A stretch of 34,649 bases of DNA, taken from the NCBI GenBank assembly GCA_003168295.1, contig PMST01000351.1, positions 26,707-61,355 on the forward strand. The letters are read 5' to 3'. Under the pieces are notes generated by a model. The model searched no databases. It saw nothing but the letters and a program-made list of their open reading frames with translations, and was not told where the DNA came from. Source of the DNA: Actinomycetota bacterium (lineage in GTDB: Bacteria > Actinomycetota > Actinomycetes > Streptosporangiales > Streptosporangiaceae). Shown here piece by piece: positions 8,341 through 29,570 of this stretch (position 1 is its first letter; the number at the start of each line of letters is the position of its first letter). Made by a program: the position numbers and the translations under genes.

Positions 8341-9321
8341 CTACACGTCGCGGCGGAGCAGCACCACCGCGGTGACGCCGATGAGGAGGGCGGCCAAAGC
8401 GGCGAAGATACCGAACTCGATGCCCTGGAACGCCCAGTAGCGACTGGCGGGCTGGTAGGTGATGAACCCGTGAAACCCGGCCAGGACCTGTCGGCAGGAC
8501 GCCGGAGGGCGCAAGACGCGACCGACCGTCGTCGCGCAGGAAGCCGGGAGGAAGCCGAGAGGAACGCCGTCGATGGCGGCCCCGTTCGGAGCCGGGATGA
8601 GCTGGCCCGCCGGGTTGCGGACGCCCTGCCCGAACTGCCAGTACGACCCGGTAGGACTGAACGGGCTGAGCAGCTTGTAGGTGACCGTGATCGCGCTCAT
8701 GTAGTGCGGGCGGAGCCAGAGCGTGACCACCGCGCGCACGGCGATGAACCCGGCCAGGGTGACGGCCATCGCGGGCAGCGTGCGGCGCAGCAGGGCGCCC
8801 GCGCACAGGCCGAGCGCCATCGCGAACAGCGCGTAGCCCACCGGGACGATGCCCATGATGTCGAACCGGCCGGGTTTGAACTGGTCGAGCTGCAGCGCGT
8901 TGTCCGGGCCGGACCACCAGGTCACCAGCGCCGAGACGGCACCGCCCCAGGCGGCCGCGGCCAGCAGCATCCACCCGGCCGTGACCGCGAGCCAGCGCTT
9001 GCGGGTGACGCTCTGCATCCAGGCGAACTGGCCGGTCCCGGTCTCGAGTTCGGCGGCCACCAGCGGCGCGCCCCAGAACAACCCGAGGACGGCCGGCACC
9101 CCCAGCGTCATGATGACCAGGAAGCCGACCGCATGGCTGCCGAGGAATAGCGTGCTGCCGAGGGTGCCGCAGCTGTGGCTCGCGCCGCAGGCGGCGAGCG
9201 CGGAGTGGTACTGCGACGCCATCTGCAGGCCGGTGACCAGCAGCAGGACGGTGAGCGCGGCGAGCAGTGCGGCGGCGATGTACAGCTGCGTGCGGTGCAG
9301 CCGCCAGATGAGCCAGCTCAT
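8341..9321 (-). CDS. ABC transporter permease
   Basis: Predicted 326-residue membrane protein with about six hydrophobic segments, beginning MSWLIWRLHRTQLYIAAALLAALTVLLLV and ending ALLIGVTAVVLLRRDV. A large extracytoplasmic loop lies between the first two segments and another before the last. This is the layout of ABC-2-type permeases paired with YtrA-regulated ATPases. Its start codon overlaps the ATPase stop (ATGA, 9318-9321), so the two are translationally coupled. The longer open frame to 9585 lies inside the ATPase gene and is rejected. It probably moves a peptide, lipid or drug, or serves in envelope stress defence; the substrate is not readable. Confidence 0.87.
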   Translation of the reverse strand: MSWLIWRLHRTQLYIAAALLAALTVLLLVTGLQMASQYHSALAACGASHSCGTLGSTLFLGSHAVGFLVIMTLGVPAVLGLFWGAPLVAAELETGTGQFAWMQSVTRKRWLAVTAGWMLLAAAAWGGAVSALVTWWSGPDNALQLDQFKPGRFDIMGIVPVGYALFAMALGLCAGALLRRTLPAMAVTLAGFIAVRAVVTLWLRPHYMSAITVTYKLLSPFSPTGSYWQFGQGVRNPAGQLIPAPNGAAIDGVPLGFLPASCATTVGRVLRPPASCRQVLAGFHGFITYQPASRYWAFQGIEFGIFAALAALLIGVTAVVLLRRDV

Positions 9322-10241
9322 TGGTCGTCTCCGATCGAGGTCAGCTGCGCCAGGGCCGACGGTGCGTCCTGACCCATGTAGGCGAGCACGAGTTCTTCCA
9401 GGCCGACGTCGCTGGTCTGGAAGGCGGGGTCGATGACCGGGCCGTTCAGCCGGACGAGCATCGTGACCTGCCGCGGCGTGCGGGTGATCTGGACCACGCG
9501 ATGGTCCCGCTCGATCGCCGAGGTGTCCTTGCGGCGGCCGACCAGGATCTGGTGCTCGGCCAGTACCGTGTCGATGTCGCCGCACAGCTGGACCCGGGAC
9601 GCGGCCAGCATGATGATGTGGTCACAGACCCGTTCCAGGTCGGCGACCAGGTGGGAGGACAGCACCACGGTCAGGCCGCCCGCGGCGACCGCGTCGGCCA
9701 GGATGGCCAGGAAGTTCCGCCGGGCCAGCGGGTCAAGTGCGGCCACCGGCTCGTCCAGCAGCAGCAGCCGGGGCCGCTTGGCCAGCGTCAGCGCCAGCGC
9801 GACCTGAGAACGCTGGCCCCCGGACAGCGTGCCCACCGCGCGGTCGAGGGGAATCGTCAGTGTCGTCAGCCGCTCGCGCACCGACTCGCCGTCCCAGCAC
9901 GGGTTCAGGTGCGCGCCGGCCCGGATGTGGTCCTCGGCGGATAGCCGCCGGTACAGCGGGATCTCCTGGGCCAGGAAGCCGATGCTGGCCAGGAAGGCCG
10001 GGTCCTGACGCGGGATGCCGCCGTTCACGGTCATCTCGCCTGTAGTCGGCTGGGTCAGTCCGGCCAGCAAGCGCAGCAGCGTGGTCTTGCCGGCCCCGTT
10101 CGGGCCGATCAGCGCGGATATCCGGCCCTCAGGAACGGTGATCGTGCAATCGCTCAGGGCGTAGACCCGCCGGTAGCGCTTGGACAGCCCGCTCGTCCGG
10201 ATCGCCGTAGCCACCTCGGGAACTGCCTGCACTGCGATCAT
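9318..10241 (-). CDS. ABC transporter ATP-binding protein
   Basis: Predicted 307-residue cytoplasmic ATPase. Walker A GPNGAGKTTLLRLLAG lies ~45 residues in, the signature LSGGQRSQVALALTLAKRP near residue 140, Walker B LLLLDEPVAALD directly after, and the H-loop VVLSSHLVADLERVCD further on. The C-terminal ~90 residues form the extra domain seen in drug-export ATPases. The ATG at 10241 overlaps the regulator stop (ATGA) and has GAGGAGATCGC in front; the longer frame to 10649 simply runs through the regulator gene. It energises the permease encoded directly downstream. Confidence 0.93.
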   Translation of the reverse strand: MIAVQAVPEVATAIRTSGLSKRYRRVYALSDCTITVPEGRISALIGPNGAGKTTLLRLLAGLTQPTTGEMTVNGGIPRQDPAFLASIGFLAQEIPLYRRLSAEDHIRAGAHLNPCWDGESVRERLTTLTIPLDRAVGTLSGGQRSQVALALTLAKRPRLLLLDEPVAALDPLARRNFLAILADAVAAGGLTVVLSSHLVADLERVCDHIIMLAASRVQLCGDIDTVLAEHQILVGRRKDTSAIERDHRVVQITRTPRQVTMLVRLNGPVIDPAFQTSDVGLEELVLAYMGQDAPSALAQLTSIGDDQ

Positions 10242-10630
10242 GCGATCTCCTCCTCGGTCTCCGCCTGCAGGGCCACCCGCAGCAGCGACTCCATCGATTC
10301 GTCGTCGAGCCCGGCCGCGCGCGCTTCCGCGACCCACCGGACCAGGCTGCGGCCCAGCCGTGAATGAGTCCCCGGTGGCGGGCCCGGCAGCCGGCGGCGT
10401 ACGAACGTGCCGTGCCCGGCCCGGGCCTCGACCAGGCCGTCGCGCTCCAGGTCGCGGTAGGCCTTCAGCACGGTGTTGGGGTTGATCGCGGTGGCCGCGA
10501 CGACTTCGCGCACGGTGGGGAGCTTGTCGCCCACGTCCAGCACGCCCATCTGCAGCGCCTGCTTGACCTGCTGGACGATCTGCAGGTACGGCGGCGCCAC
10601 CGACCGCCCGTCCATCCGGAAGCTGATCAC
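10238..10630 (-). CDS. GntR-family regulator, YtrA subfamily
   Basis: Predicted 130-residue repressor. The winged helix occupies residues ~8-78: PPYLQIVQQVKQALQMGVL, then KLPTVREVVAATAINPNTVLKAYRDLERDGLV and a wing ending GTFVRRR. The short ~45-residue C-terminal helical tail is the size typical of the YtrA subfamily, which lacks a large effector domain. It starts at GTG 10630 with AGGAC upstream. It is the first gene of an operon with an ABC ATPase and permease, the usual YtrA context, where the regulator represses its own operon. A matching inverted repeat lies 18 bp upstream of the start. YtrA systems often respond to cell-wall-active antibiotics; the inducer here is unknown. Confidence 0.9.
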   Translation of the reverse strand: MISFRMDGRSVAPPYLQIVQQVKQALQMGVLDVGDKLPTVREVVAATAINPNTVLKAYRDLERDGLVEARAGHGTFVRRRLPGPPPGTHSRLGRSLVRWVAEARAAGLDDESMESLLRVALQAETEEEIA

Positions 10631-10647
10631 CCGACCGCCCGTCCTTC

Positions 10648-10671
10648 AAAGTACTAGTTAACTAAGACTTT
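10648..10671. promoter_or_regulatory. YtrA-type operator (24-bp inverted repeat)
   Basis: The half-sites AAAGTACTAGTT (10648-10659) and AACTAAGACTTT (10660-10671) pair at 10 of 12 positions around the perfect centre TAGTTAACTA. It lies 18 bp upstream of the GntR-family start. Long AT-rich inverted repeats in this position are typical YtrA autoregulatory sites. Confidence 0.7.
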
Positions 10672-10732
10672 AGGCCCAGACCCACCCCGCTGTCAACGGC
10701 AACCCACCCCGCGCATGTCCCCGTAACCACCG

Positions 10733-10772
10733 CAATGGACCATTGATAGCGTAATAGCAACACCAATGGTCC
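10733..10772. promoter_or_regulatory. CCATTG/CAATGG inverted-repeat array upstream of the lasso precursor
   Basis: CAATGGACCATTG (10733-10745) is a perfect 6-1-6 palindrome. Its right part, GGACCATTG (10737-10745), pairs perfectly with CAATGGTCC (10764-10772) across an 18-nt spacer. The array lies 120-160 bp upstream of the precursor gene and about 20 bp before a weak candidate promoter (TGGACC 10791-10796, 17 nt, TAGGCT 10814-10819). It could bind a regulator of the cluster or form an RNA hairpin; none is encoded inside the cluster. Confidence 0.45.
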
Positions 10773-10798
10773 GTCCTTATCGTTTGCATCTGGACCGA

Positions 10799-10923
10799 CA
10801 CAAGCGCATGGGATAGGCTCATAATCTATTCGCGAAATACGAGCGCTCTCGGCCGAGATTTCCCCTTTAGTCAGAAAATGTGAGGAGCCGAAATGACAGG
10901 CAACGGTGAGCACGGCCAGCCGG
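10799..10923 (+). repeat. duplicated promoter/leader segment, copy 1
   Basis: This stretch is repeated in diverged form at 11116-11250. Shared blocks in order are CAAGCGCATGGGATAGGCTC, then CGCGAAATAC, then CTCGGC, then a TAGTCAG...ATGTGAGG block, then GAAATG with the first eight or so codons. Here it carries the ribosome binding site and start of the lasso precursor. Confidence 0.75.
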
Positions 10924-11072
10924 CGAGAAAACGGGTGGAGCAGACGGCGGCCGAATCCGCGCGTCCCGCATGGGCTAAACCTGTGATCCGCCGGTTCTCG
11001 CTGGCCAGGACGCTGGCCGGTAGCGGTGTCTTCAATGATGGGGGAGCCGTTCATCAACCGACGCCGACCTAA
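10893..11072 (+). CDS. lasso peptide precursor (A protein)
   Basis: A 59-residue protein with GAGGAG 5 nt before its ATG. The basic leader holds W27-A-K-P30-V-I32, matching the Y/W-x2-P-x-L/I motif that lasso B1 proteins bind, and T40 sits at the usual -2 position. Cleavage after L41 gives an 18-residue core AGSGVFNDGGAVHQPTPT. Ala1 and Asp8 can form an eight-residue macrolactam; the tail GGAVHQPTPT would thread it. The AG-x-G start is like paeninodin, and the last residue is Thr, a possible site for the HPr-kinase-like enzymes encoded nearby. The synthetase gene follows on the same strand. Assignment rests on motif and context; the exact cleavage site is inferred. The monoisotopic mass of the dehydrated core from residue masses is 1692.79 Da. 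Confidence 0.85.
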   Translation: MTGNGEHGQPARKRVEQTAAESARPAWAKPVIRRFSLARTLAGSGVFNDGGAVHQPTPT

Positions 11073-11115
11073 CGGCTCCGCATGCACGGGCCGCTGCAGA
11101 CACACCGAGACCCAT

Positions 11116-11250
11116 AACAAACGTATGGGACAGGCTCGCCAACACGGCGAGTAGCCTAGTCGCAGAATACTAGTGCCCTCGGCTGCAATTCCCTTAAGTC
11201 AGGATATGTGAGGGTTGAAATGGCAGACGACGGTGAGAAGGGCTGGCCGG
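11116..11250 (+). repeat. duplicated promoter/leader segment, copy 2
   Basis: Diverged copy of 10799-10923. It keeps ATGGGA-AGGCTC, TCGCAGAATAC, CCTCGGCTG, AAGTCAG, ATGTGAGG and GAAATGGCAG, but has a net gain of about 10 nt in the middle, where a hairpin has formed. It precedes the synthetase gene rather than a full precursor gene. Confidence 0.72.
11133..11156 (+). terminator. hairpin between precursor and synthetase genes
   Basis: CTCGCC (11135-11140) and GGCGAG (11146-11151) pair around AACAC, and GG/CC outside can extend the stem across a two-base bulge. It lies about 60 nt after the precursor stop. Lasso operons often hold a partial terminator here that keeps precursor mRNA in excess; that role is inferred. 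No T-tract follows. Confidence 0.4.
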
Positions 11251-11306
11251 GGGAAGGCGGGAGGAGCGGCGCTGAGAGCCATCGCCACTACGATCGGAGC
11301 CGGTAG
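11220..11306 (+). pseudogene. 28-codon remnant of a second precursor, coupled to the synthetase gene
   Basis: An ATG preceded by GTGAGGGTT opens a 28-codon frame beginning MADDGEKGWPG, which aligns with MTGNGEHGQPA of the real precursor at the DNA level for about 30 nt. After that, similarity fades and the frame ends at TAG 11304-11306, without a W/Y-P-L motif or a core. The TAG shares its G with the GTG start of the synthetase gene, so ribosomes finishing this frame could restart there. It is best read as a truncated duplicate of the precursor that now acts as a leader ORF; expression of a functional peptide is unlikely. Confidence 0.55.
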
Positions 11307-13267
11307 TGAGCGCGATCTTCGGGCTGGTGCGCGTCGACGGCGACCGGCTCCCCAGCCAGGCGCTCGAGGGAATGAGGTCTGCCCTGGCGGACCACGGCGG
11401 TGACGGGGGCGGCATCTGGGCGCTTGCCGGGGCGGGCCTTGGCCAGCAGTTGAAGTTCGTGACGCCCGAGGACCGGTTCGAGCGCCAGCCGCTCGTCAGC
11501 CCGGATGGTCTTCGCGTGCTGGTGAGCGACGGGCGCATCGACAACCGCCCGGAGCTGTCTGGTGAGTTGAGCCTTCCAGCGCGGGCTGGCCCGGATTCGG
11601 CGTTTATCCTGGCCGCGTACGAGCGCTGGGGTACCGATTGCGGTAAGCATCTGGTCGGCTCGTTCTCGTTCGCCATCTGGGACGCCGGCCTGAAGCGGCT
11701 GCTGCTCGCCCGGTCGCCGTTCGGTGCGAAGCCGACCTTCTTCCATCAGTTCGCAGGCTTCTTCGCGTTTGCCACCATGCCTAGGGCGCTCTTCACGCTC
11801 CCCGGCGTACCGCGCCGGTTGTGCCTGGAAAACGTCGCGGACGGCCTGATCCTGGTACCGCCGGAGCCGGGGACCAGCCTGTTCCAAGATATCCGCAGTC
11901 TTGAGCCAGGTCATGTGCTCACCGTGGACCGCCGAGGCCGCCAGGAGCGGGCGTTCTGGAGACCCGAGCTGCGGCATGAGCTGCGGCTGCGTCGCGATGA
12001 GGAGTATGTGGAGGCGTTCACGGAGCGGTTTGACCGGGTGGTCGCGGACCACCTGCGGAGCCTGAGCCCGGTCGGCGTGCTGATGAGCGGCGGACTGGAT
12101 TCGACCTCGGTGGCGGCCACGGCGGCTCCGCAGCTCGCCCGGCGTGGGGAGCGCCTGGCTGCCTTCACGGCTGCGCCCCGGGATGGTTACCGGGAGCCCG
12201 GCGCGCCGGACTGGCTGGTCGATGAGGCGCCGCTGGCAAGCACGGTCGCGGCCAGATACGAGAACATCGATCTGTCCGTCATCCGCGCCGAGGGGCTGTT
12301 CTTCCTCGATGGGCTCGACCGGTTCTTCGATGCCGCCGAGATGCCATATGAGTCGCCGGCCGGCCGGGTCTGGTACGAGGGCATCATGGCCGAGGCACAG
12401 CGCCGGGGCATCCGCGTGCTGCTGTCCGGGAAGTGCGGAAACTGGACCGTAAGCTGGAACGGCGCCGGTCTGATCCGATCGCTCGTCGGTACCGGGAGAT
12501 GGGCTGCCGCGTGGCGCGAGACTCGTGTCCTAGCATCGACAAGCCGGGTCCGGCCCGCCGCCGGTGCCCTGGTCCGCGGGGGACTGATCTCGCAACTGCC
12601 ATTTCGGGTCCAGCTCGCGATCGCGCGCCGCCGCAACGGCGACGATCCGCTGCTCGCCTCCGACGCATGGTGGGCGCCGTTGTCCCCGATCCATCCCGAG
12701 TTCGCCCGGGCCCAGGGCGTAGCCGAGCGCAGCCGCGCCCGGGCGTGCGATCACTGGTTCCGCCGCCGGCTCGACACGCCTGAGCGCCGCTGCGACCAGC
12801 TGGTGCACGTGCAGCGGCTGGCCGGCATCAACGGCGCCTGCCAGGCTCTGTACGCCACGGATATCCGCGACCCCACTGCGGACACGCGGGTCGCCGAGTA
12901 CTGCCTGTCGCTGCCGGAGGAGCAGTATCGCCGTGCGGGTGTGTCACGCTGGCTGATCAGGCGCGCGATGGCCGGCCGCCTGCCGGCCGAGATCCTGGCC
13001 AGTCCCCGGCGTGGCATCGATACCGCGGACTGGTTCGAACGGCTGTCTGGCGCCCGGGTCCGGGTGTTCGACACGCTCCACCTGCTGGAGCAGAGCCAGA
13101 CCGCCAGCGCGGTCCTTGACCTGCCCCGGATGCGACGGCTCGCCGAGCAGATGGACCAGCCGGCGTCAGATCCGGTGCAAAAGATGATGGACTACCGTCA
13201 CGTCCTGGAAAGGGGCCTGATGATGGGGAGGTTTCTCTGCTGGTTCGAAGGCAGCCGTGACTCATAG
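11306..13267 (+). CDS. lasso peptide macrolactam synthetase (C protein, asparagine-synthetase-like)
   Basis: Predicted 653-residue cytoplasmic enzyme. The N-terminal half is a glutaminase-like domain starting MSAIFGLVRVDGDRLPS; it lacks the Cys2 nucleophile of real amidotransferases, as expected for lasso cyclases. The C-terminal half has the PP-loop SGGLDSTSVAAT near residue 260, and SGKCGNWTVSWNG later, as in asparagine-synthetase-type AMP-forming domains. The family activates the Asp/Glu side chain of the core with ATP and closes the ring with the N-terminal amine. The GTG start at 11306 overlaps the stop of the short upstream ORF. The gene ends 11 bp from the convergent kinase gene, with no clear terminator between. 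Confidence 0.93.
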   Translation: MSAIFGLVRVDGDRLPSQALEGMRSALADHGGDGGGIWALAGAGLGQQLKFVTPEDRFERQPLVSPDGLRVLVSDGRIDNRPELSGELSLPARAGPDSAFILAAYERWGTDCGKHLVGSFSFAIWDAGLKRLLLARSPFGAKPTFFHQFAGFFAFATMPRALFTLPGVPRRLCLENVADGLILVPPEPGTSLFQDIRSLEPGHVLTVDRRGRQERAFWRPELRHELRLRRDEEYVEAFTERFDRVVADHLRSLSPVGVLMSGGLDSTSVAATAAPQLARRGERLAAFTAAPRDGYREPGAPDWLVDEAPLASTVAARYENIDLSVIRAEGLFFLDGLDRFFDAAEMPYESPAGRVWYEGIMAEAQRRGIRVLLSGKCGNWTVSWNGAGLIRSLVGTGRWAAAWRETRVLASTSRVRPAAGALVRGGLISQLPFRVQLAIARRRNGDDPLLASDAWWAPLSPIHPEFARAQGVAERSRARACDHWFRRRLDTPERRCDQLVHVQRLAGINGACQALYATDIRDPTADTRVAEYCLSLPEEQYRRAGVSRWLIRRAMAGRLPAEILASPRRGIDTADWFERLSGARVRVFDTLHLLEQSQTASAVLDLPRMRRLAEQMDQPASDPVQKMMDYRHVLERGLMMGRFLCWFEGSRDS

Positions 13268-13278
13268 CGCCAGCCGGT

Positions 13279-14115
13279 TCAGCTCTCGGCTCCGTCCTCG
13301 ACGATGTCGGCGAGTTCGCCGGCTGTCCACCGGCCGCGTGGCCGGATGAGTCGGCGGATCGGGATACCAGAGCCGGCGACAGCGCCGGCGACGGTCAGGT
13401 AACTGGTCCGGTCAAGCAACGCGCTGGCGATGCGCCGGTTATACGCCATCGCTCCGAGAGCCTCAAACCGCGAGACGCCCTCGACGCCGTGAACCTCGAT
13501 CGGGTCGAAGCCGTGGACACCGAGCCACCAGATCGCCCTGACCGGCCGTGCGTCATCGACAAACCTGGCCTCCAAGCCGACGGCCCGCCGCGACCCCGCC
13601 GGGCCGAACTCCGTGGCGTCGGCCCCGTCAGCAACCGACGTCGCGCCTCGGACCGCGTCGGGCCACAGGATCATCTCCGGCCATGTCGCCACCGCGACCG
13701 CCACGCCCGCGTCATCGACGGTCAGCGGCGCGAGATCGTCGGCCAGCAGCCCCCATCCCCGTTGCACCAGCGCGGCGAGCAGGACGGACTTGCCGGCGCT
13801 CGAATTGCCGGCCAGCACGATCGCATGCCCGGCCGGGTCGGCTGCGACCGCGGCGTGCAGCACCGGGATGCCGCGCTGCAGGTACAGCGCGGCCGTCGGG
13901 GTCATCCGAAGAAAGCGCCGCACCTCCCCGGCCCCGGCGCCCCCGTACGGCTCGATCTCCACCAGCTTTCCCTCCGAGACGAGATAGCGAGCCACGTCGG
14001 GGACCTCGAGCAGCAAACGTCCGGGGCCGGCACGCCACAACACTCCCGAGTGCGGCGCGGCCGCCAAGTCTCCGACCGAAGCCGGGCACCGGATGACGCA
14101 GCCGTCAAGACCCAT
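13279..14115 (-). CDS. HPr-kinase-like protein 1, probable lasso peptide kinase
   Basis: Predicted 278-residue protein of the HprK C-terminal fold. GIPVLHAAVA is followed by the P-loop AGNSSAGKS (residues ~102-110) and GWGLLADDLAPL, the usual HprK spacing of His, Walker A and Asp pair. In paeninodin-type lasso clusters such enzymes phosphorylate the hydroxyl of the C-terminal residue of the precursor. It is the last gene of the minus-strand operon, overlapping the sulfotransferase gene by 11 bp. Its P-loop differs from that of the second kinase (GESGAGKST), so the two probably have different partners or acceptors, or one may be inactive. A role in carbon-catabolite control is unlikely: the HprK N-terminal domain is missing and the context is biosynthetic. 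Confidence 0.8.
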   Translation of the reverse strand: MGLDGCVIRCPASVGDLAAAPHSGVLWRAGPGRLLLEVPDVARYLVSEGKLVEIEPYGGAGAGEVRRFLRMTPTAALYLQRGIPVLHAAVAADPAGHAIVLAGNSSAGKSVLLAALVQRGWGLLADDLAPLTVDDAGVAVAVATWPEMILWPDAVRGATSVADGADATEFGPAGSRRAVGLEARFVDDARPVRAIWWLGVHGFDPIEVHGVEGVSRFEALGAMAYNRRIASALLDRTSYLTVAGAVAGSGIPIRRLIRPRGRWTAGELADIVEDGAES

Positions 14116-14938
14116 AGCCGAACCGCTCCATCGTCTCGTGATGCGCTGCCGTCAGGCGCTCGGCCAGATGGCCCGGCAGCTCATCGCGCCATGAGCCGAC
14201 CTCACCCCGGCGGAAGAACCCGCCCGGCGCCGCCGTCGACCGTTCCCCGAAGCCGGCCGATCCCTCCTGACGCTGCAGCTCGGCAAACGACGAGAACGCC
14301 ACCGCCTTCTCGACCCCGTCCTCGTCGTAGTCGAGACCACAAGACCTGACCACGCCCCCGAATACACGGCAAGGGTCGACGCTCAGGTCCTCGTACCGGA
14401 CCACGTGAACCGGCCCGCCCGAGTCATCGACCCAGGACCGGACATGGAGGCTCCACGACCCGACCTGCTGGCGGAGCTGGCCCGGCAGACCGGACAGGCG
14501 CTCAGCGGAGCCGCCGCACATCCGGTCGACCGCCGCCTCTATCGGCGTACCCCAGTGGTGAGCACACGACCCGGCCACGTCGAGCGGGTTTCGGATGATG
14601 TAGACAACGCCCAGCGTGACGTCCGCGGGAAACATCGGCTCGCCGGTGTCGATCCGCGCCCACGCGTCGTGCACCTTCATGAACAATGTGTCGTCCGCAT
14701 CCCGGGCCGCGCAGCGGTATACCTGCGGACGAAGCCGGTCGACGACGTTCGCATCGAGCGCGGATCCTTCGATCCCTGCCCACTGGTCGAAGCACTCACG
14801 GGAGCTCGCGCCCGGGGCGCCGAGGAGATTGTTGATGTCCGCCGGCTCGCCGGTGTCCCTGACGTAGTTGGTGAGCAGCACGCGCAGCCACGTATTGCCC
14901 GATTTCGGATACGACGCCAGCCAGACGATGCCGCTCAT
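14105..14938 (-). CDS. sulfotransferase, probable lasso tailoring enzyme
   Basis: Predicted 277-residue PAPS-dependent sulfotransferase. The 5'-phosphosulfate loop is at residues 7-19 (LASYPKSGNTWLR), and the 3'-phosphate motif VVYIIRNPLDVAGSCAHHWG lies near residue 135. The C-terminal GGFFRRGEVGSWRDEL matches the RKG-x2-GDW region of cytosolic sulfotransferases. Its ATG overlaps the stop of the second kinase gene (ATGA) and its end overlaps the first kinase gene, so it is embedded between the two kinases of the lasso operon. It may sulfate a Ser or Thr of the peptide (Ser3, Thr16, Thr18 of the core) or a sugar or phosphate added to it; the acceptor is unknown. Confidence 0.87.
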   Translation of the reverse strand: MSGIVWLASYPKSGNTWLRVLLTNYVRDTGEPADINNLLGAPGASSRECFDQWAGIEGSALDANVVDRLRPQVYRCAARDADDTLFMKVHDAWARIDTGEPMFPADVTLGVVYIIRNPLDVAGSCAHHWGTPIEAAVDRMCGGSAERLSGLPGQLRQQVGSWSLHVRSWVDDSGGPVHVVRYEDLSVDPCRVFGGVVRSCGLDYDEDGVEKAVAFSSFAELQRQEGSAGFGERSTAAPGGFFRRGEVGSWRDELPGHLAERLTAAHHETMERFGYGS

Positions 14939-15864
14939 AGGACCAGCTCAGGCACGCTGCCGAAGATCGCGTCGCCCACCTCGCCGATCGACCACCGCCC
15001 GGCCGGCCGTTCCAGCCAGAAGAACGGCACGGTGTTCACGACCGTCGACATCAGGGGAAACAGCGCCGGGTGCTCCTCGGTGAACATCGGACCGTACATG
15101 CACTCCTGCAACGCATGGAACTTGTCACCCCCGCTGACCTGAGTCAGCACGACGTCATCGGCACGCGACAGCCGAAGTACGTACAACGCCCGGAGCCGGC
15201 CTGCCCGCCAGGCCATGCCGTCATGGGTGAGGATCGCGGCCTTCATCCGCCGCCACGGCTGCAGCTGCGCCGGATCGACCGTGTAGCCGAGACCCTCGGC
15301 GGCGTCCTCGGCGAGGTGAGTCTGCGCCACGCCGGGCAGGACCTCCACCGACCTGGGCGCACCACCGGGCCGCAGCGCGGTCACGTCGTCGGAGAGCATC
15401 CGGCCGCCGCGATCGCGCAACGCGGCCAGGGTCGTCGATTTCCCGGCCCCAGACTCACCGCCGATCACGATCACGCCACCAGGCACCTCGACCGCGTTGG
15501 CATGCAGGACGAGCAGGCCGCGGTGCCGCAACAACGCGGCCAGCACCTGGTCGGTAAAGTGCCGGGCGAGGATGGCGTCCTCGCACCCGGGGTTCCGCTC
15601 GAACGTCACGGCGTCCGCTTCAACCAGGAATCGCCCGGCCCGCCGGCCGCCGCGCAGCAGGAACAGTCCCGGAGCGGCATCCCACGACGCCTCGCTGGCC
15701 TGCGGCGCGCGCAGCCGCCGTGGCACCAGGCCCTCACCCACGACGACATCGGCGCCAGTGACATCTACGCCAGGCGCAACGCAGCCGGTGTCGACCGGGG
15801 TCAGCGCCGGGCAGGCGAACGGCACCCGGATCGTCAGCCCGTAGGCGTGGTAGGTGTAGCTCAT
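14935..15864 (-). CDS. HPr-kinase-like protein 2, probable lasso peptide kinase
   Basis: Predicted 309-residue protein. A beta-rich N-terminal region (MSYTYHAYGLTIRVPFACPA) is followed by the HprK-type core: LLVLHANAVEV, Walker A GGESGAGKST (residues ~135-144) and RGGRMLSDDVTAL with the paired Asp. This is the full set seen in lasso kinases such as the paeninodin enzyme, which uses ATP (or other NTPs) to phosphorylate the C-terminal Ser of the precursor. Here the matching residue would be Thr59 of the precursor. It is coupled by ATGA overlaps to the B2 gene upstream and the sulfotransferase downstream. Of the two kinases this has the more canonical P-loop and is the better candidate for the primary phosphorylation. 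Confidence 0.83.
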   Translation of the reverse strand: MSYTYHAYGLTIRVPFACPALTPVDTGCVAPGVDVTGADVVVGEGLVPRRLRAPQASEASWDAAPGLFLLRGGRRAGRFLVEADAVTFERNPGCEDAILARHFTDQVLAALLRHRGLLVLHANAVEVPGGVIVIGGESGAGKSTTLAALRDRGGRMLSDDVTALRPGGAPRSVEVLPGVAQTHLAEDAAEGLGYTVDPAQLQPWRRMKAAILTHDGMAWRAGRLRALYVLRLSRADDVVLTQVSGGDKFHALQECMYGPMFTEEHPALFPLMSTVVNTVPFFWLERPAGRWSIGEVGDAIFGSVPELVL

Positions 15865-16334
15865 CCGCGCAGGCCGGCCGATGGCCGATAGGCGGCGATG
15901 ACGGAATACCGGTGCTGGCTGCCACCTCCGGTGACGAGGCCGTCACCGCACCGCAACCAGCTGTGAGCGATGAGCTCGCCTCCGGCGTCCTTAGCGACGC
16001 CTAGGTACACGACGCTCGGGACATCATGTCGGCGGAGCATCACGTAACCGGCCAGCGACTGGACCAGGCAGGTGCTGAGCCACGGCGTGCGGGCGGCCAC
16101 ACCTTGCACCGCCCACCCGATCGCCTCGGCCCGGGCCCGGTGGCCTGCGCAGGATGAGAGCGAGACGTCCGAAGGGTCGGACTGCGTCAGCCCCAGCAGC
16201 GATGCCAGCCGCCGGTACGGCAGCACCAGGACGGCGACCCGCAGTAGCCCCAGCCACCCGATCGCCTCGATGAGCAGGCGCCGCTCCGTCGGCGAAAGGC
16301 CCCGGGCGCGGACCAGATCACGGCCCAACGACAC
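15861..16334 (-). CDS. lasso leader peptidase B2 (transglutaminase-like)
   Basis: Predicted 157-residue protein of the lasso B2 / transglut_core3 family, which cuts the leader from the core after B1 delivers the precursor. The Cys protease residues are visible: C89 in RTPWLSTCLVQSLAGYVMLR, H124 in ELIAHSWLRCGDG, and probably D131. Length and the N-terminal helix (LSPTERRLLIEAIGWLGLLR) fit split B2 proteins. Start GTG 16334 has GAAGGGA with 8-nt spacing and overlaps the B1 gene by 17 bp; the end overlaps the second kinase gene by ATGA. Works in the cytoplasm together with B1 and C. Confidence 0.92.
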   Translation of the reverse strand: MSLGRDLVRARGLSPTERRLLIEAIGWLGLLRVAVLVLPYRRLASLLGLTQSDPSDVSLSSCAGHRARAEAIGWAVQGVAARTPWLSTCLVQSLAGYVMLRRHDVPSVVYLGVAKDAGGELIAHSWLRCGDGLVTGGGSQHRYSVIAAYRPSAGLRG

Positions 16335-16602
16335 GCGCGATCCCTTCGCAGGTCAGCTCGGCCAGGAACGGCAGCACGTCGGCCGCGACCTGATCCGGCG
16401 TGGTGTCGAAGTCCTGGCTCAGCTTCCGGCAGAGCTCGGCCACCTCGTGGGGTTGCTCGATGAGATCCCACACGGCGCGGCCGATCGCGTCGAGTCCGAC
16501 GTAGTTGTCACGATCCGGGTTCAAGATCACGATCTCGTCGTCGACGGCCGTGCTGAGCAGTCCGGCGGTCCGGACGACGACCGTGCCAGGCTCGATAGTC
16601 AT
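16318..16602 (-). CDS. lasso RiPP recognition element B1 (PqqD-like)
   Basis: Predicted 94-residue PqqD-family protein. The three-strand start (GTVVVRTAGLLSTAVDDEIVIL) and the conserved YVGLDAIGRAVWDLIEQP, then the helices VAELCRKLSQDFDTTPDQVAADV, are hallmarks of a RiPP recognition element. It binds the leader motif (W27-P30-I32 here) and brings the precursor to the B2 peptidase. It lies 15 bp after the exporter gene and overlaps the B2 gene, as in most actinobacterial clusters where B is split in two. Confidence 0.93.
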   Translation of the reverse strand: MTIEPGTVVVRTAGLLSTAVDDEIVILNPDRDNYVGLDAIGRAVWDLIEQPHEVAELCRKLSQDFDTTPDQVAADVLPFLAELTCEGIARVVGP

Positions 16603-16617
16603 GAAAGGTCCAATCAG

Positions 16618-18432
16618 TCAGGAGGGGCGTCCGGCGAGGACATCGTGACGGCGGGCCGGGACGACCCGGCCGTCGGCCACCGTGATCACCTGGTCGGCGT
16701 CGCGAAGGGAGGAGCGCTGATGCGCGATGACAAGAATGGTCATGCTGCCGTGCAGCATCGCCAGCGCGTCGAGGATGGCGGTCTCGTTCCCGGCGTCGAG
16801 CGAGCTGGTCGCCTCGTCAAGCACGAGCAGCGTCGGCTCGCGGAGCAGCGCACGAGCCAGGGCGATGCGCTGACGTTCTCCGCCGGAGAGCCTCGCCCCT
16901 CGGTCGCCGACGACGGTATCGAGACCGTCGGGCAGCTGACGCACGAGTGCTTCGGCTGACGCCAGCGCCAGCGCCCGCCACAGTTCGCCCTCGCTCGCGC
17001 CAGGCTGGGCCCACAGCAAGTTGGCCCGGATGCTCTCATGGAACAAGAAGACGTCCTGGGGCACCATCGCCACCTCCTCGCGCCACCGCGGGATGAGCTC
17101 GCCGGCCAGCGCCGCGCCGTCAATCAGCACCCGGCCCGACGTCGGTACCAGCAGTCCCACGGCCAGGTCGGCGATGGTGGTCTTCCCTGCTCCTGACGGA
17201 CCGACCAGCGCGGTGGTCGCGCGGGCGGGCACCTCAAGGGTCACCCCGTGCAGCACTTCGACCGGCTGGCTGTCCGGCCGCCGGTAGGAAAAGCAGACAC
17301 TGTCGAGGCACAGTCGATCCGAGAGGACCGGACGGCGCTCGGAGAGGGCGAGAGGGCGATCGGAGAGGATCGGACGGCGCCGGCTGGGAGCAGGCTGAAG
17401 TTCCCCTTCGGCGGCGCGGGCGCAGTCATCGATCACGGCGGTGAGCTCGCCGAAGGCGGGCAGCGACTGGGCCAGCGTCTGCACGTTGGACTGGGCCTGG
17501 GTGACCTGTGGCACCAGGCGGGTGAAAATGAAGGCAAGCACCAGCAGTTCGGCGAGCGAGACGGCGTGCTGGCCGGCGACGACGTCGATCAGCACCGCCA
17601 GGACGACGGCCGTGGCGCTGAACTGCACGGCCCCAGCGGCGGCCTGAGCCTTGGTGAAGTCGATCTGCGAACGCCTGGACCGGGCAATCGCGCTGTCGAA
17701 ACTCGTGAGGTGCCCGGGCTCAAGCCCGTGGACCTTGGCGAGCTTGAGCCCGTCAAGGAACCCGGTCACCGAGGCGAGCACGCCCCGGTTGAGCTGGACC
17801 AGCTCCCGGCCCAGGCGGCGGCTGCGCGCGACCAGCGGCCACATCAGCGCCGCGAGGCCGATGCCGGTCGCCATGGCGAGGCCGGTGACCGCCGGGGAGA
17901 TGCGCAGGGCCACAGCCACCTGCACGATGATGACGACAACGGCGACGCCGAGATTCAGCACGGCGAGCGTCCCCTGGCCGACCCAGCTGACGTCGATAGT
18001 CAGCGCGGTGAGCAGATCGGACTGGCGCAGGCCGAGAAGGTGCCGCCACTCGGCACGGGCGATGGTTCCGTAGAGCCGCTGACGCAGCTCATCGACGAAC
18101 TCCAGGCGATAGCGCACCAGCAGCACGTTCTGGTAGGCGGTGAGCGCCGCCGCCATGGTGACCACGGCGACGTAGACGACCAGCATGGCGCTGAGGGAGA
18201 GCGGAACGCCGAGGGCATGGAAGGCCTCGCGGGCGCGCGCCATCAGCCCTGCTGCGGAGGCTGCCCGGCTGACTCCGGCCAACTCCAGGAGCGGCACCAG
18301 CAACAGCAGCCCCGCGCCCTGGATCAGTGCGGCGATCACCTGGACGGTGAGCACCCACGCCAGCCGCCGCGGGTTGCCCGCGGCCAAGGCCGCAAGGAAC
18401 CTGCCCGCTCCTGCACCCGGATGAGCCCTCAC
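16618..18432 (-). CDS. lasso peptide ABC exporter (D protein)
   Basis: Predicted 604-residue half-transporter with fused membrane and ATPase domains. The first ~330 residues carry about six hydrophobic segments (e.g. LAWVLTVQVIAALIQGAGLLLLVPLLELAG). The ATPase has Walker A GPSGAGKTTIAD, signature LSGGERQRIALARALL, Walker B LLVLDEATSSLD and H-loop VIAHQRSS. There is no N-terminal peptidase domain, as expected because B2 removes the leader. It should export the mature peptide and give self-immunity. GTG 18432 overlaps the nucleotidyltransferase stop (GTGA); the longer frame to 18516 lies inside that gene. An Arg/Pro/Leu/Ser-repeat linker (SRRRPILSDRPLALSERRPV) before the ATPase domain is unusual. 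Confidence 0.9.
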   Translation of the reverse strand: MRAHPGAGAGRFLAALAAGNPRRLAWVLTVQVIAALIQGAGLLLLVPLLELAGVSRAASAAGLMARAREAFHALGVPLSLSAMLVVYVAVVTMAAALTAYQNVLLVRYRLEFVDELRQRLYGTIARAEWRHLLGLRQSDLLTALTIDVSWVGQGTLAVLNLGVAVVVIIVQVAVALRISPAVTGLAMATGIGLAALMWPLVARSRRLGRELVQLNRGVLASVTGFLDGLKLAKVHGLEPGHLTSFDSAIARSRRSQIDFTKAQAAAGAVQFSATAVVLAVLIDVVAGQHAVSLAELLVLAFIFTRLVPQVTQAQSNVQTLAQSLPAFGELTAVIDDCARAAEGELQPAPSRRRPILSDRPLALSERRPVLSDRLCLDSVCFSYRRPDSQPVEVLHGVTLEVPARATTALVGPSGAGKTTIADLAVGLLVPTSGRVLIDGAALAGELIPRWREEVAMVPQDVFLFHESIRANLLWAQPGASEGELWRALALASAEALVRQLPDGLDTVVGDRGARLSGGERQRIALARALLREPTLLVLDEATSSLDAGNETAILDALAMLHGSMTILVIAHQRSSLRDADQVITVADGRVVPARRHDVLAGRPS

Positions 18433-19403
18433 CGGCCGTCGCCCTTGGCGAGCCTTCGGCGGACCCTGACGAAACGCACCGCGGAAACGAAGGCCGGCGC
18501 GAGATCCCACCACCACCTCGCATAGGCGAGCAGCAGGGTGCGCCCGTGCGCGTCGGGACGGCGCGACATGTGGCGGACCCAGGCCGGGCTCGGGAGGAGC
18601 TTTGAGCGGATCCGCTGCGCCTTAACGCGCAACGTGAGAGCGGACGAGAACTCAGTGAGCGACGCTGAGCCCCGAGGGGCGGAGAGCATCCAAGACCATG
18701 GATCGGCCGGTGAGAGATAGGGCAGAGCGAGGCTGTCGGCGATTTCGGCGCCGACCCCATGGTGGCGCAGCCCAAGCCCGAGGATTCCCGCGATGCCCAG
18801 TCGTGCCGCCAGGTCGGCGACCGGTCGCCAGTCATCCACGGACATCACCGTGATGGCCCGGCAGAGGTCCTCGCTGGTGTGGGACTGGAACCCGTGCTGC
18901 ACGGCGTGGACGACCACGTGCAGGGCGAGCGCGGTACGGCCGAGCACACAGACCTGGACGTCGCCGACTCCGATGGTCTCGGTGCCCGCGCTGAACGCCT
19001 CCCACAGGATTTCGTCGGGGGTGGGCAGCATGGGCAGGTTGCGGTGCAGGTCAACGCCGTCGTCCGGACCGCGGCCGAGTGCGGGCCTACGGGCGAACTC
19101 GATCTCCACCTTCACGCTCTGCTCGAAGGTGTGAAGCCCCTCCACTACCTCGGAAAAGCCGAGCGATTTGAGCATGGTCCGGGCGCGGCCAAATTCGCAG
19201 GCGGGAACGAGGATGTCGGTGTCGACGTAGGTGCGGCCACCGGACGGATAAAGCCACCGGGCGATCGACGGTCCCTTGAGCAAGATGCTCGGAATACCGG
19301 CATCCTGAAAGGCGCCGACGACCTCGGCGCTGACCCGATCACAGCCCAGTGCGCGCGCCGCGTTGAGCAGCGCTCGACCTGGGACCGCCCCCCGAGCGAT
19401 AAT
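18429..19403 (-). CDS. nucleotidyltransferase family protein (NTP_transf_5), probable ATT start
   Basis: Nucleotidyltransferase of the PF14907 type common in kinase-containing lasso clusters. The core reads GIPSILLKGPSIARWLYP then TYVDTDILVP (metal-binding Asp pair) and VKVEIEF. Relatives have helices before GIP; here the frame codes for a fitting stretch (AARALGCDRVSAEVVGAFQD) upstream of the first usual start, a TTG at 19283 inside LLKGP that would remove it. There is no ATG, GTG or TTG further up, but ATT 19401-19403 is in frame with GAGGGGG (19409-19415) 5 nt before it, so this 324-codon version is proposed; a CTG at ~19370 is an alternative. In the pseudomycoidin pathway a related protein is thought to extend the phosphorylated tail with sugar; a similar role is possible. 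First gene of the operon. Confidence 0.75.
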   Translation of the reverse strand: MIARGAVPGRALLNAARALGCDRVSAEVVGAFQDAGIPSILLKGPSIARWLYPSGGRTYVDTDILVPACEFGRARTMLKSLGFSEVVEGLHTFEQSVKVEIEFARRPALGRGPDDGVDLHRNLPMLPTPDEILWEAFSAGTETIGVGDVQVCVLGRTALALHVVVHAVQHGFQSHTSEDLCRAITVMSVDDWRPVADLAARLGIAGILGLGLRHHGVGAEIADSLALPYLSPADPWSWMLSAPRGSASLTEFSSALTLRVKAQRIRSKLLPSPAWVRHMSRRPDAHGRTLLLAYARWWWDLAPAFVSAVRFVRVRRRLAKGDGR

Positions 19404-19514: not shown

Positions 19515-19533
19515 TACCGGAAGGGTGGCCGTC

Positions 19534-19803
19534 ATGCCGATCACCGCGAGCGAGGCCCGCAAGGAGCTCTTCCCGCTGATCAAGAAGGTCAACGAGGACC
19601 ACGACGCCATCGAGATCGTCTCCAGGCACGGCAACGCCGTCCTGCTCTGCGCCGAGGACTACGCCGCCCTGCGCGAGGGCGCTTACCTGCTGCGCTCGCC
19701 AGCCAACGGCCGCCGGCTGCTCAAGGCCTACGAGAACGCCCTGAACGGCACCCACCTAGCCGAACACGCCCTGATCGATCCCGACGCGGTGGACGCCCGG
19801 TAG
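19534..19803 (+). CDS. yefM: YefM/Phd-family antitoxin
   Basis: Predicted 89-residue antitoxin. The N-terminal Phd/YefM DNA-binding fold reads MPITASEARKELFPLIKKVN, then IEIVSRHGNAVLLCAEDYAAL; the C-terminal part (LLRSPANGRRLLKAYENAL) would wrap the toxin. ATG 19534 has GGAAGGG with 8-nt spacing; an in-frame GTG 9 nt upstream is too close to that site. It neutralises the RNase encoded 6 bp downstream and, with it, should repress the operon. It borders the lasso cluster, divergent from the nucleotidyltransferase gene. Confidence 0.93.
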   Translation: MPITASEARKELFPLIKKVNEDHDAIEIVSRHGNAVLLCAEDYAALREGAYLLRSPANGRRLLKAYENALNGTHLAEHALIDPDAVDAR

Positions 19804-19809
19804 CGCCGG

Positions 19810-20064
19810 GTGCGGCTGGTATTCGAGAACCAGGGCTGGGAGGACTACGCGTCCTGGCTCAAGACCGACCGCAAGATGCTCGCGCGGATCAACAAGCTGA
19901 TCTCCGATGTCCGGCGGGATCCGTTCACCGGCATCGGTAAGCCCGAGCCGCTCAAGTACCACCTGCCCGGGGCCTGGTCGCGGCGCATCGATGACGAGCA
20001 CCGTCTCGTCTACATCGTCACGGAAGCAGAGATCGTCATCCTCGCCGCCCGCTACCACTACTGA
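19810..20064 (+). CDS. yoeB: YoeB-family mRNA interferase toxin
   Basis: Predicted 84-residue ribosome-dependent endoribonuclease, exactly the length of E. coli YoeB. The catalytic residues fall at the same numbers: E46 (GKPEPLK), R65 (DDEHRLVY), H83 and Y84 in the terminal RYHY. It cleaves mRNA in the ribosomal A site under stress when the antitoxin is degraded. The GTG start follows the antitoxin stop by 6 bp with a GCGCCGGG stretch instead of a strong ribosome binding site, fitting coupled, lower toxin translation. All key residues are present, so it is probably active. Confidence 0.95.
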   Translation: MRLVFENQGWEDYASWLKTDRKMLARINKLISDVRRDPFTGIGKPEPLKYHLPGAWSRRIDDEHRLVYIVTEAEIVILAARYHY

Positions 20065-20465: not shown

Positions 20466-21476
20466 TCAGCGCTGCGGTTCGATGACGACCTTGAGCCCGG
20501 TGCGACGCGCCCCTTCTCCGAACGCCGCTCGTATCTCGCCCAGGCCCATCCGGCTCGTCACCACCGAGGCGAGATCCACCACCCCCCGCTCGGCCAGGCC
20601 AATGGCCCTCGGGTACACCTCGTTCATCCGCCGCACCATCGCGATCGTCAGCCCCTTGCGCCGAGCGGCCGAGGCCCCGAACCTGATCGCGTCGTCACCG
20701 GGGATGCCGGCCAGCACGACCCGTCCGCCCGGCCGGACCGAGGCGATCGCCAGCCCGACGCTCTCGTCGTTGCCCGCCGCCTCGAACGCCACATCCACCC
20801 CGTGGCCGGTCATCTCGCGCATGAGATCGTCCCCGAACGATCCAGGATCGGCCACCAGATCAGCGCCCGCCCGCGCCGCCGCTTCCCGCCGGTGGGCCAG
20901 CGGCTCGATGGCGAGCACCGAGCTCGCGCCCGCCGCCTTGAGCAGCTGGATGAGCAGCAGCCCGATCGGCCCGCAGCCCACCACCGAGGCCGAGCCGCCG
21001 TACGGCAGGTGTCCCAGGTCGACGGAATGCACCGTCACCCCGAGGGGTTCGAGCATGGCGCCGTCCGCGTCGGACAGCCGGTCGGGCAGCGGGTACAGCT
21101 GCGCCGCGGGCCAGGTCATGAACTCGCGCATCATGCCGTCGGTGTCCCCGTGCCCGGAAAACCTGAGGTGGTAGCACAGGTTCCGGTAGCCGTCGCGGCA
21201 GGCGCGGCACCGCTCGCACGGAATCGCCGGGTCGATCGCGACCCGCTCACCGCTCCGCGGCCCGTCGGCGATCACCCCGGCCCCCTCGTGCCCGAGCACG
21301 AGCGGATGTGTGAGCTTGGCGTCGCCGATCGCGCCCTCGTCCCACCAGTGCAGGTCAGAGCCGCAGATCCCGACCGCCGTAACCCGCACCAGGGCAGTCC
21401 CCGGAGCGTCGGCCGACGGCACCGGCTCCTCCGCCACCCGAAGGTCGCCCACCGCGTGGAGTCTCGCTACGCGCAC
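20466..21476 (-). CDS. zinc-dependent alcohol/polyol dehydrogenase (L-idonate 5-dehydrogenase-like)
   Basis: Predicted 336-residue medium-chain dehydrogenase. Catalytic zinc ligands are C38 (GICGSDLHWW), H63-E64 (GHEGAGV); structural zinc Cys are C87, C90, C93 and C101. The Rossmann motif VVGCGPIGLLLIQLLKAAGAS is followed by an acidic residue (AIEPL), pointing to NAD preference. The family oxidises sugar alcohols or acids such as sorbitol, xylitol or L-idonate. GTG 21476 is preceded by GGAGG with 7-nt spacing; a GTG at 21500 would place that site inside the gene and was rejected. The exact substrate is unknown. Confidence 0.87.
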   Translation of the reverse strand: MRVARLHAVGDLRVAEEPVPSADAPGTALVRVTAVGICGSDLHWWDEGAIGDAKLTHPLVLGHEGAGVIADGPRSGERVAIDPAIPCERCRACRDGYRNLCYHLRFSGHGDTDGMMREFMTWPAAQLYPLPDRLSDADGAMLEPLGVTVHSVDLGHLPYGGSASVVGCGPIGLLLIQLLKAAGASSVLAIEPLAHRREAAARAGADLVADPGSFGDDLMREMTGHGVDVAFEAAGNDESVGLAIASVRPGGRVVLAGIPGDDAIRFGASAARRKGLTIAMVRRMNEVYPRAIGLAERGVVDLASVVTSRMGLGEIRAAFGEGARRTGLKVVIEPQR

Positions 21477-28494: not shown

Positions 28495-28498
28495 CGTG

Positions 28499-28529
28499 TG
28501 GTCCGGCCGAACAGGGGCCGGCCGGACCA
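28499..28529 (+). terminator. strong hairpin after the alpha/beta hydrolase gene
   Basis: A perfect 11-bp stem, TGGTCCGGCCG (28499-28509) with CGGCCGGACCA (28519-28529), over a nine-base loop, starts 5 nt after the stop codon. No T-tract follows. It isolates the hydrolase gene from the deoC operon. Confidence 0.75.
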
Positions 28530-28630
28530 ACTCGCCGGTGAACTCCGTCCGTCCGCTTACCTCGGCGGCCGCCGAAGTCGTGGCCGTGGGTAAGAATGGT
28601 GACTTAGAAGTCTCGCGGAGGGAGTCGCTG

Positions 28631-29569: not shown

Positions 29570-29570
29570 C

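What the first reader, a model, noticed from the sequence alone, without database searches (positions are those of the whole stretch)
10893..11072. Unannotatable-size gene encodes a new lasso peptide precursor
The 59-codon frame is easily missed by gene callers. It has a good ribosome binding site, W-x2-P-x-I, Thr at -2 and a core AGSGVFNDGGAVHQPTPT with Asp8 for an eight-residue ring. A complete C, B1, B2 and D set surrounds it. I do not recognise this core as a described lasso peptide, but no search was possible.
Basis: partly seen in the sequence, partly recalled or inferred. Interest (0 to 1): 0.92.

Follow-up and report, generated by a model that had tools for sequence, protein, structure and literature searches.

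The report
Lasso peptide precursor with unusual tailoring
An actinomycete-like bacterium carries a small gene for a new knot-shaped (lasso) peptide, beside two different kinase-like enzymes and a sulfotransferase that probably add phosphate and sulfate to it; the knot class is known, but I found no characterised example with this set of decorating enzymes.

Summary
ORF 10893-11072 (+) encodes 59 aa and is a conserved lasso precursor: 22 family members (itself included), with W-x2-P, Thr(-2) and core Asp8 invariant in 22 of 22. The motif alone is weak evidence (1.2 hits per randomised window), so conservation and neighbourhood carry the claim. C, B2, B1 and D are present. The first ten core residues occur in no paper of the open PMC library. 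"Easily missed by gene callers" is only partly right: 11 of 21 relatives bear a JGI "hypothetical protein" label.

More interesting is the tailoring operon: two HprK-like proteins (K1, K2) around a sulfotransferase (S), plus a nucleotidyltransferase. K1 and K2 are no recent duplication: each forms its own supported clade, apart from 11 kinases of other clusters fetched here. The K1-K2-S set recurs in two further genomes (alphaproteobacterial by class of draw) with precursors of similar layout. Ser3 is invariant in 22 of 22, and BsfK, a characterised lasso kinase, acts on core position 3, so ring Ser3 is my best guess for the phosphorylated residue. None of the 22 cores contains Tyr, so sulfation would fall on Ser/Thr or a sugar. 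No product is shown.

The parts
10882..10887 (+). ribosome binding site GAGGAG, 5 nt before the start codon
   Evidence: read directly
10893..11072 (+). A: lasso precursor, 59 aa; leader codons 10893-11015, core codons 11016-11069 (AGSGVFNDGGAVHQPTPT)
   Evidence: 22-member family
10971..10988 (+). leader motif W-A-K-P-V-I (RRE-binding type WxxP)
   Evidence: W and P invariant in 22 of 22
11010..11012 (+). Thr(-2) codon
   Evidence: invariant in 22 of 22
11022..11024 (+). core Ser3 codon, proposed phosphorylation site (inferred)
   Evidence: Ser in 22 of 22; BsfK precedent, PMC10368454
11037..11039 (+). core Asp8 codon, predicted ring-closing residue
   Evidence: Asp in 22 of 22
10793..10941 (+). 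copy 1 of a duplicated stretch: upstream region, RBS and first codons of the precursor
   Evidence: local alignment score 120 against copy 2; 284 other window stretches: mean 22.7, at most 38
11109..11267 (+). copy 2 of that stretch, between A and C
11220..11306 (+). remnant of a second precursor: ORF of 28 aa in copy 2, similar over its first codons, then out of frame; its TAG overlaps the GTG start of C by one base
11306..13267 (+). C: asparagine-synthetase-like lasso cyclase; Ser after the start where glutamine-using relatives have Cys (recalled), SGGLDS present
   Evidence: PF00733, PF13537 above cut-off; lasso cyclase model NF033535 best NCBIfam hit but below its cut-off
13279..14115 (-). 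K1: HprK-like protein, own clade; His87, P-loop GKS, Asp126-Asp127 present
14105..14938 (-). S: sulfotransferase
   Evidence: PF00685 above cut-off; Teg12/Teg14/StaL nearest in PDB; alignment
14935..15864 (-). K2: second HprK-like protein, different clade; His, GKS and DD present; overlaps S by 4 bp
15861..16334 (-). B2: leader peptidase
   Evidence: NF033537 85.6 bits, cut-off 33
16318..16602 (-). B1: PqqD-like recognition element
   Evidence: PF05402 above cut-off; TbiB1 best PDB match
16618..18516 (-). D: ABC exporter
   Evidence: PF00005, PF00664 above cut-off
18429..19403 (-). N: nucleotidyltransferase (NTP_transf_5); listed from TTG 19283, but the homologous frame reaches up to an ATT at 19403-19401 behind GAGGGGG at 19415-19409
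   Evidence: 54.8 bits read from 19283, 75.2 bits read from 19400; sequence

Best explanation
The ORF is the precursor of a class II lasso peptide (no cysteine in this core) from a Streptosporangiales-like actinomycete. Likely order of events: B1 grips the WAKPVI leader motif and presents the precursor to the tailoring enzymes; K2, with or helped by K1, phosphorylates the core while it is still linear, most likely at ring residue Ser3; B2 cuts after Leu41; C joins Ala1 to Asp8 around the threaded tail; D exports. S adds sulfate to a Ser/Thr hydroxyl or to a sugar, and N may add a sugar or nucleotide to the phosphate. Shown here: ORF, conservation, gene set, kinase clades, recurrence of the K1-K2-S set. 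Inferred: every enzymatic step, the modified residue and the order. My estimates: lasso precursor used by these enzymes 0.95; phosphorylated 0.75; at Ser3 rather than the C-terminal Thr 0.6; sulfated 0.45.
Against: No product, expression or mass data. Precedent conflicts on the site: PadeK, SyanK and PsmK act on a C-terminal Ser (PMC9266682); here the C-terminus is Thr in 19 of 22 and Ser in 0 of 22. LppK does not accept Thr for Ser3 in its substrate (PMC13381572), BsfK does (PMC10368454). In L039 position 3 is Val or Met, so Ser3 is not universal in dual-kinase clusters. K1 of L039 and L067 has Asn for the catalytic His, so K1 may not be a kinase there. The P-loop of the window's K1 reads GNSSAGKS, without the middle glycine (Gly166) listed for BsfK. 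Both kinases score far below the cut-offs of every HprK model. C and B1 fall below the cut-offs of the NCBIfam lasso-specific models NF033535, NF033536 and NF033530. The precursor family was found in neither genome contigs nor viral contigs. The organism is known only by similarity of DeoC-ALDH-ALDH to Nonomuraea.
Confidence: 0.85

Rival explanations
1. Paeninodin-like reading: the kinases act on the C-terminal hydroxyl (Thr18, perhaps Thr16), and N and S then build on that phosphate; Ser3 is conserved for ring structure only.
For: C-terminal Thr in 19 of 22 and Thr/Ser at the third-last position in 21 of 22 cores. Kinase+S clusters L002, L049 and L051 have candidate precursors ending in Ser, and a less certain candidate in L040 does too. 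PadeK/SyanK/PsmK act at the C-terminal Ser (PMC9266682).
Against: L067, with the K1-K2-S set, has a core AGSGSNPD with no tail; the L039 cores end in Pro and Val; the window's kinases are not in the clade of the other lasso-cluster kinases.
Confidence: 0.25
2. One site per kinase: K2 phosphorylates a ring serine and K1 the tail Thr (or K1 extends the first phosphate), so the peptide carries two phosphate positions and S a third group.
For: Two separate clades K1 (99/98) and K2 (100/100) found together in window, L039 and L067; two conserved hydroxyl positions in the family.
Against: L067 keeps K1 though its precursor has no tail; K1 there and in L039 lacks the catalytic His. In L066 a K2 was found and no K1.
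Confidence: 0.2
3. The ORF is a chance frame, or a decayed relic like the one at 11220-11306, and the cluster is dead or uses another precursor.
For: The motif scan alone does not beat randomised windows; a second, broken copy of the precursor start lies next to it.
Against: 21 homologs with leader and core; C, K1, S, K2, B2, B1 and D are uninterrupted ORFs; this is the only ORF of the window that fits the pattern.
Confidence: 0.03
4. S has nothing to do with the peptide (sulfates a lipid or polysaccharide) and only travels with the cluster.
For: Related sulfotransferases occur without lasso genes: 12 of the 20 fetched S neighbourhoods show none, though several of these are short or cut contigs.
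Against: In the other 8 of 20 (7 with a C match, L038 with kinase and exporter matches only) S sits next to a kinase gene; so it does in L002 (the same place as L035), L004, L067, L068 and L069, which were found through kinases. In the window it lies between K1 and K2 with overlaps.
Confidence: 0.2

Closest known systems
Bsf lasso cluster, Bradymonas sediminis (PMC10368454; abstract, section 22 and passages seen)
   Same: A, B1, B2, C, D, one HprK-like kinase and a nucleotidyltransferase; core with Asp8 and a conserved Ser3, which BsfK phosphorylates
   Different: One kinase, no sulfotransferase named; Y-x2-P-x-L leader and Ile(-2) instead of W-x2-P and Thr(-2); other phylum
Paeninodin / pseudomycoidin (PMC9266682, PMC8498205, PMC13381572; passages seen)
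   Same: WxxP leader motif, HprK-like kinase, NTP transferase, MsbA-like exporter
   Different: One kinase acting on a C-terminal Ser, which is absent here (0 of 22); Bacillota; two Bacillaceae lasso-cluster kinases fetched here fall in another clade than K1 and K2
Lasso clusters with kinase and sulfotransferase genes (PMC4289311, PMC8498205; passages seen)
   Same: Kinase and sulfotransferase genes in some lasso clusters, already pointed out in 2014 and in a 2021 review
   Different: No product or function given there; no second kinase mentioned in the passages seen
Linear polyphosphorylated peptides, LPP (PMC13381572; passages seen)
   Same: RRE, HprK-like kinase, NTP transferase, exporter; Ser3 phosphorylation by LppK
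   Different: LPP clusters lack a cyclase and use an SpI peptidase; here C and B2 are present. L066 looks more like this type
Glycopeptide sulfotransferases Teg12, Teg14, StaL (PDB)
   Same: Best solved-structure matches of S
   Different: They sulfate glycopeptide antibiotics of non-ribosomal origin (recalled); best E only 9.5e-13

Membership tests
lasso peptides | precursor next to a B/C biosynthetic set | tested here: met
   C starts 233 bp downstream; B2, B1, D in the convergent operon
lasso peptides | leader with [WY]-x2-P motif and Thr at -2 | tested here: met
   W27, P30, T40 invariant in 22 of 22; not significant by itself
lasso peptides | Asp/Glu at core position 7-9 | tested here: met
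   Asp8 in 22 of 22
lasso peptides | NCBI lasso B2 model NF033537 | tested here: met
   85.6 bits, cut-off 33
lasso peptides | NCBI lasso cyclase and B1 exception models | tested here: not met
   NF033535 319.5 of 525 bits; NF033536 51.6 of 80; NF033530 26.9 of 70. By their kind 'exception' these seem to be models of subgroups (my reading); the general Pfam models are met
lasso peptides | isopeptide ring with threaded tail | not testable with these tools
   needs mass spectrometry or NMR
paeninodin-like lasso peptides | C-terminal Ser as kinase target | tested here: not met
   C-terminal Ser in 0 of 22; Thr in 19 of 22
paeninodin-like lasso peptides | WxxP leader | tested here: met
   22 of 22
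paeninodin-like lasso peptides | kinase of the same lineage | tested here: inconclusive
   K1 and K2 are each a clade apart from 11 other lasso-cluster kinases, two of them from Bacillaceae; PadeK itself was not in the tree
Bsf-type phosphorylated lasso peptides | Ser at core position 3 | tested here: met
   22 of 22
Bsf-type phosphorylated lasso peptides | Ile(-2) and YxxPxL leader | tested here: not met
   Thr(-2) and WxxP
HPr(Ser) kinase/phosphatase (K1, K2) | NCBI model TIGR00679 | tested here: not met
   20.8 and 24.5 bits of 240; relatives by fold, not members
HprK/PEPCK kinase fold (K1) | fold of the P-loop domain | tested here: met
sulfotransferases (S) | Pfam PF00685 and the N-terminal PKSGNTW loop (its PAPS-binding role is recalled) | tested here: met
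   72.7 bits, cut-off 22; PKSGNTW in 12 of 13 aligned S, two of them from places without lasso genes; L051 has MKSGNTW
sulfated lasso peptide | sulfate on the product | not testable with these tools
   no product

The most novel reading that the evidence does not exclude
The cluster makes a doubly tailored lasso peptide, phosphorylated in the ring by a two-kinase system in which K1 has become a partner or second-step enzyme of K2, and then sulfated, which would be the first sulfated lasso peptide that I know of. In L067 the same system would act on a tail-less eight-residue ring (AGSGSNPD), a decorated macrolactam that cannot be threaded.
Probability: 0.3. Interest if true: 0.72.

Novelty: new variant of a known kind. 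Interest (0 to 1): 0.52.

Why it matters
Sulfotransferase genes in lasso clusters have been pointed out since 2014 (PMC4289311), and I found no product for them in my searches. This family offers a compact test case: short cores with no Tyr, one invariant ring Ser, and S set between two kinase genes. It suggests that HprK-like lasso kinases come in at least three lineages, two of which occur as a pair, and it extends WxxP/HprK/NTP-transferase lasso gene sets to an actinomycete-like host. Phosphate and sulfate differ by only 9.5 mDa here, so a nominal +80 shift cannot tell them apart.

Tried and rejected
Motif significance: tested against 60 randomised windows and found not significant alone, so it was not used as an argument.

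Precursor alignment against genome contigs and viral contigs: 56 and 29 pattern matches, 0 confirmed. The close precursor family is thus known here only from the protein search.

K1 against plasmids: 4 records, 26-38% identity, none covering 80% of K1. The search of the Nonomuraea record failed for size.

S in the class of the Virgibacillus genome: 0 of 299 at E <= 1e-35; the tool warns that an empty answer without a positive control shows nothing.

Precursors: with the patterns used none was found in L001, L003, L004, L037, L038, L047, L068 or L069, none convincing in L005, one less certain in L040.

Promoters and terminators: no promoter-like site on the + strand and no terminator-like site at 10640-11320 (one promoter-like site on the - strand at 10696-10667), none at 13200-13360. 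Rfam: 0 matches. A 'tRNA' at 20902-20988 without a named amino acid lies inside an ORF that looks by eye like an alcohol dehydrogenase and is judged false.

Counting caveats: S matched in 3 of 369 genomes of the class of the Thiodictyon genome and in 77 of 385 of the class of the Hyphomicrobiales genome, centres included; of the 77, 16 were fetched by region (the best-scoring after the centre), plus 4 places in 3 genomes of the first class. L036, L044, L052 and L027 are short or cut by contig ends. Taxonomic classes of G genomes are inferred from the named centre. Of 12 genomes with a match to the K2 of L039 among 248 of its order, four besides G640 were not excluded by score and were fetched (G1170, G1162, G1118, G1143); seven were not looked at. 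Of 7665 S homologs 120 were listed; of 95 K1 homologs 94 have a contig length. The 14 shared lengths are an indirect sign of linkage. The tree warns that the two long K1 branches of L039 and L067 meet; without L067, L039 K1 still grouped with K1 (99/97).

Full report
Observation. The frame 10893-11072 is present, with GAGGAG 5 nt before the ATG. It encodes MTGNGEHGQPARKRVEQTAAESARPAWAKPVIRRFSLARTLAGSGVFNDGGAVHQPTPT. A motif scan finds only this ORF in the window, but 60 randomised windows give 1.2 hits on average (up to 4), so the motif by itself proves nothing.

Conservation. The protein search returned 22 members including the window's own, from 5.8 billion proteins. In the alignment W27, P30, T40, core Ser3 and core Asp8 are invariant in 22 of 22. 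Position 1 is Ala in 21 and Ser in 1; the last residue is Thr in 19 of 22; no core contains Tyr; there are 20 distinct cores, 18-20 residues long. A conserved leader with a varying core is what one expects of a lasso precursor. Eleven of the 21 others carry a JGI 'hypothetical protein' label, so the gene is often called.

Neighbourhood. A and C lie on the + strand; a convergent run N-D-B1-B2-K2-S-K1 lies on the - strand, ending 11 bp from the end of C. Pfam supports C, S, B2, B1, D and N above cut-off; the two kinase-like genes match the HPr kinase C-terminal domain only below it. NCBIfam calls B2 a lasso peptidase above cut-off; lasso-specific cyclase and B1 models are among the best hits but below their cut-offs. 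B1's best solved relative is TbiB1.

Host. No whole genome is held for the window. DeoC-ALDH-ALDH at 28496-31872 is collinear with Nonomuraea gerenzanensis at 75, 83 and 71% identity, so a Streptosporangiales-like actinomycete is likely; this is inference from three genes. The first ALDH's next best organism in that plasmid collection stands at 57%.

Recurrence. Of 20 fetched neighbourhoods of S matches, 8 contain lasso-type genes (7 with a C match; L038 with kinase and exporter only), and in these 8 S sits beside a kinase gene; 12 show no lasso gene, several of them short contigs. Two kinases with S occur in G640 (L039: C-K1-K2-S-B1-B2) and in G1162 (L067: the same order, with an exporter and, by eye, a nucleotidyltransferase-like ORF beyond C). 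A search of 385 genomes of that class with the window's K2 (E <= 1e-20) found three: the centre G1162 itself, G640, and G455, whose kinase belongs to the other group; so apart from the chosen centre the pair was met in 1 of 384. L039 has two precursor candidates, cores SNVGSVADGGLGSTP and ASMGSLNDGGTPTV; L067 has one, core AGSGSNPD, ending at Asp8. L002 (Thiodictyon, one kinase found, plus S) has AGTGSYNDATNYPDPGIS.

Mechanism. BsfK phosphorylates Ser3 of BsfA on the precursor, helped by B1 (PMC10368454); LppK acts on Ser3 of LppA (PMC13381572); PadeK, SyanK and PsmK act on a C-terminal Ser and PsmN adds hexose to the phosphate (PMC9266682). Here Ser3 is invariant and C-terminal Ser absent, and L067 has no tail; I therefore favour Ser3. 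Against this, position 3 is Val or Met in L039, and the C-terminal Thr is nearly as conserved as Ser3 in the family. S has no Tyr to act on in any of the 22 cores, so Ser/Thr or a sugar is left. That S acts on the peptide at all is inferred from its place beside kinase genes.

A duplication. A stretch of 149 bp, from upstream of A into its first codons, is repeated between A and C (score 120; 284 other window stretches at most 38). The second copy holds the start of a precursor that soon loses frame and ends in a TAG overlapping the GTG of C. C may thus be driven by, and translationally coupled to, what is left of a second precursor; this is inference.

Novelty. Five core strings and one leader string of the family are in 0 papers of the PMC library. 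Searches for lasso peptide with sulfotransferase, HPr kinase (26), sulfated (27), sulfation (38), kinase with nucleotidyltransferase and actinobacteria (39), two kinases (80), and any three of lasso peptide, sulfotransferase, kinase and Streptosporangiales (94) showed no characterised sulfated lasso peptide in their listings or in the passages that I saw (PMC8498205, PMC4289311, PMC8776678, PMC13381572, PMC9484694, PMC12325987, PMC9266682, PMC10368454). Most subscription papers are not held, and the paeninodin paper itself was not. Lasso clusters with kinase and sulfotransferase genes were noted in PMC4289311 and PMC8498205. I therefore rate it a new variant of a known kind.

Noticed in passing
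10793-10941 and 11109-11267: Imperfect tandem duplication of the precursor's upstream region, RBS and first codons; copy 2 is a broken precursor start whose ORF overlaps the start of C by one base.
   Followed up: yes
L067:12608-12757 (-): Precursor whose predicted core AGSGSNPD ends at the ring Asp8, so nothing is left to thread, beside a K1-K2-S-B1-B2-C set; may be real or a sequencing or stop artefact.
   Followed up: partly
L066, 8020-13239 (+): K2-type kinase, B1, B2 in one ORF with a nucleotidyltransferase match, exporter and three tandem precursor-like ORFs (ends MWCPSTGCPD, NGCPSTGCPT, NGCPSTGCLG after T-L) without Asp/Glu at 7-9; no cyclase match in the 18.9 kb fetched. Looks like a linear phosphopeptide (LPP-like) system outside Bacillota.
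   Followed up: partly
L039:10693-11565 (-) and L067:9864-10634 (-): K1 proteins with Asn in place of the catalytic His, although 21 of 22 aligned K1 homologs of the window have His; K1 may be changing into a partner protein.
   Followed up: partly
19525-20064 (+): YefM/YoeB type II toxin-antitoxin pair directly beside the start of the tailoring operon (PF02604, PF06769).
   Followed up: partly
8341-10630 (-): GntR regulator followed by an ABC ATPase (PF00005) and a permease-like ORF (by eye) beside the precursor; could serve regulation or self-protection.
   Followed up: no
18429-19403 (-): Nucleotidyltransferase gene without ATG/GTG start in its homologous frame; reading from 19400 raises the Pfam score from 54.8 to 75.2 bits.
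   Followed up: partly
G711:C157:313-7979, L046, L053: Tandem arrays of up to six sulfotransferase genes related to S; the L046 and L053 neighbourhoods, the two fetched, show no lasso genes.
   Followed up: no
L068:2902-10227: Two divergent kinase-sulfotransferase pairs beside C and B1 matches.
   Followed up: no
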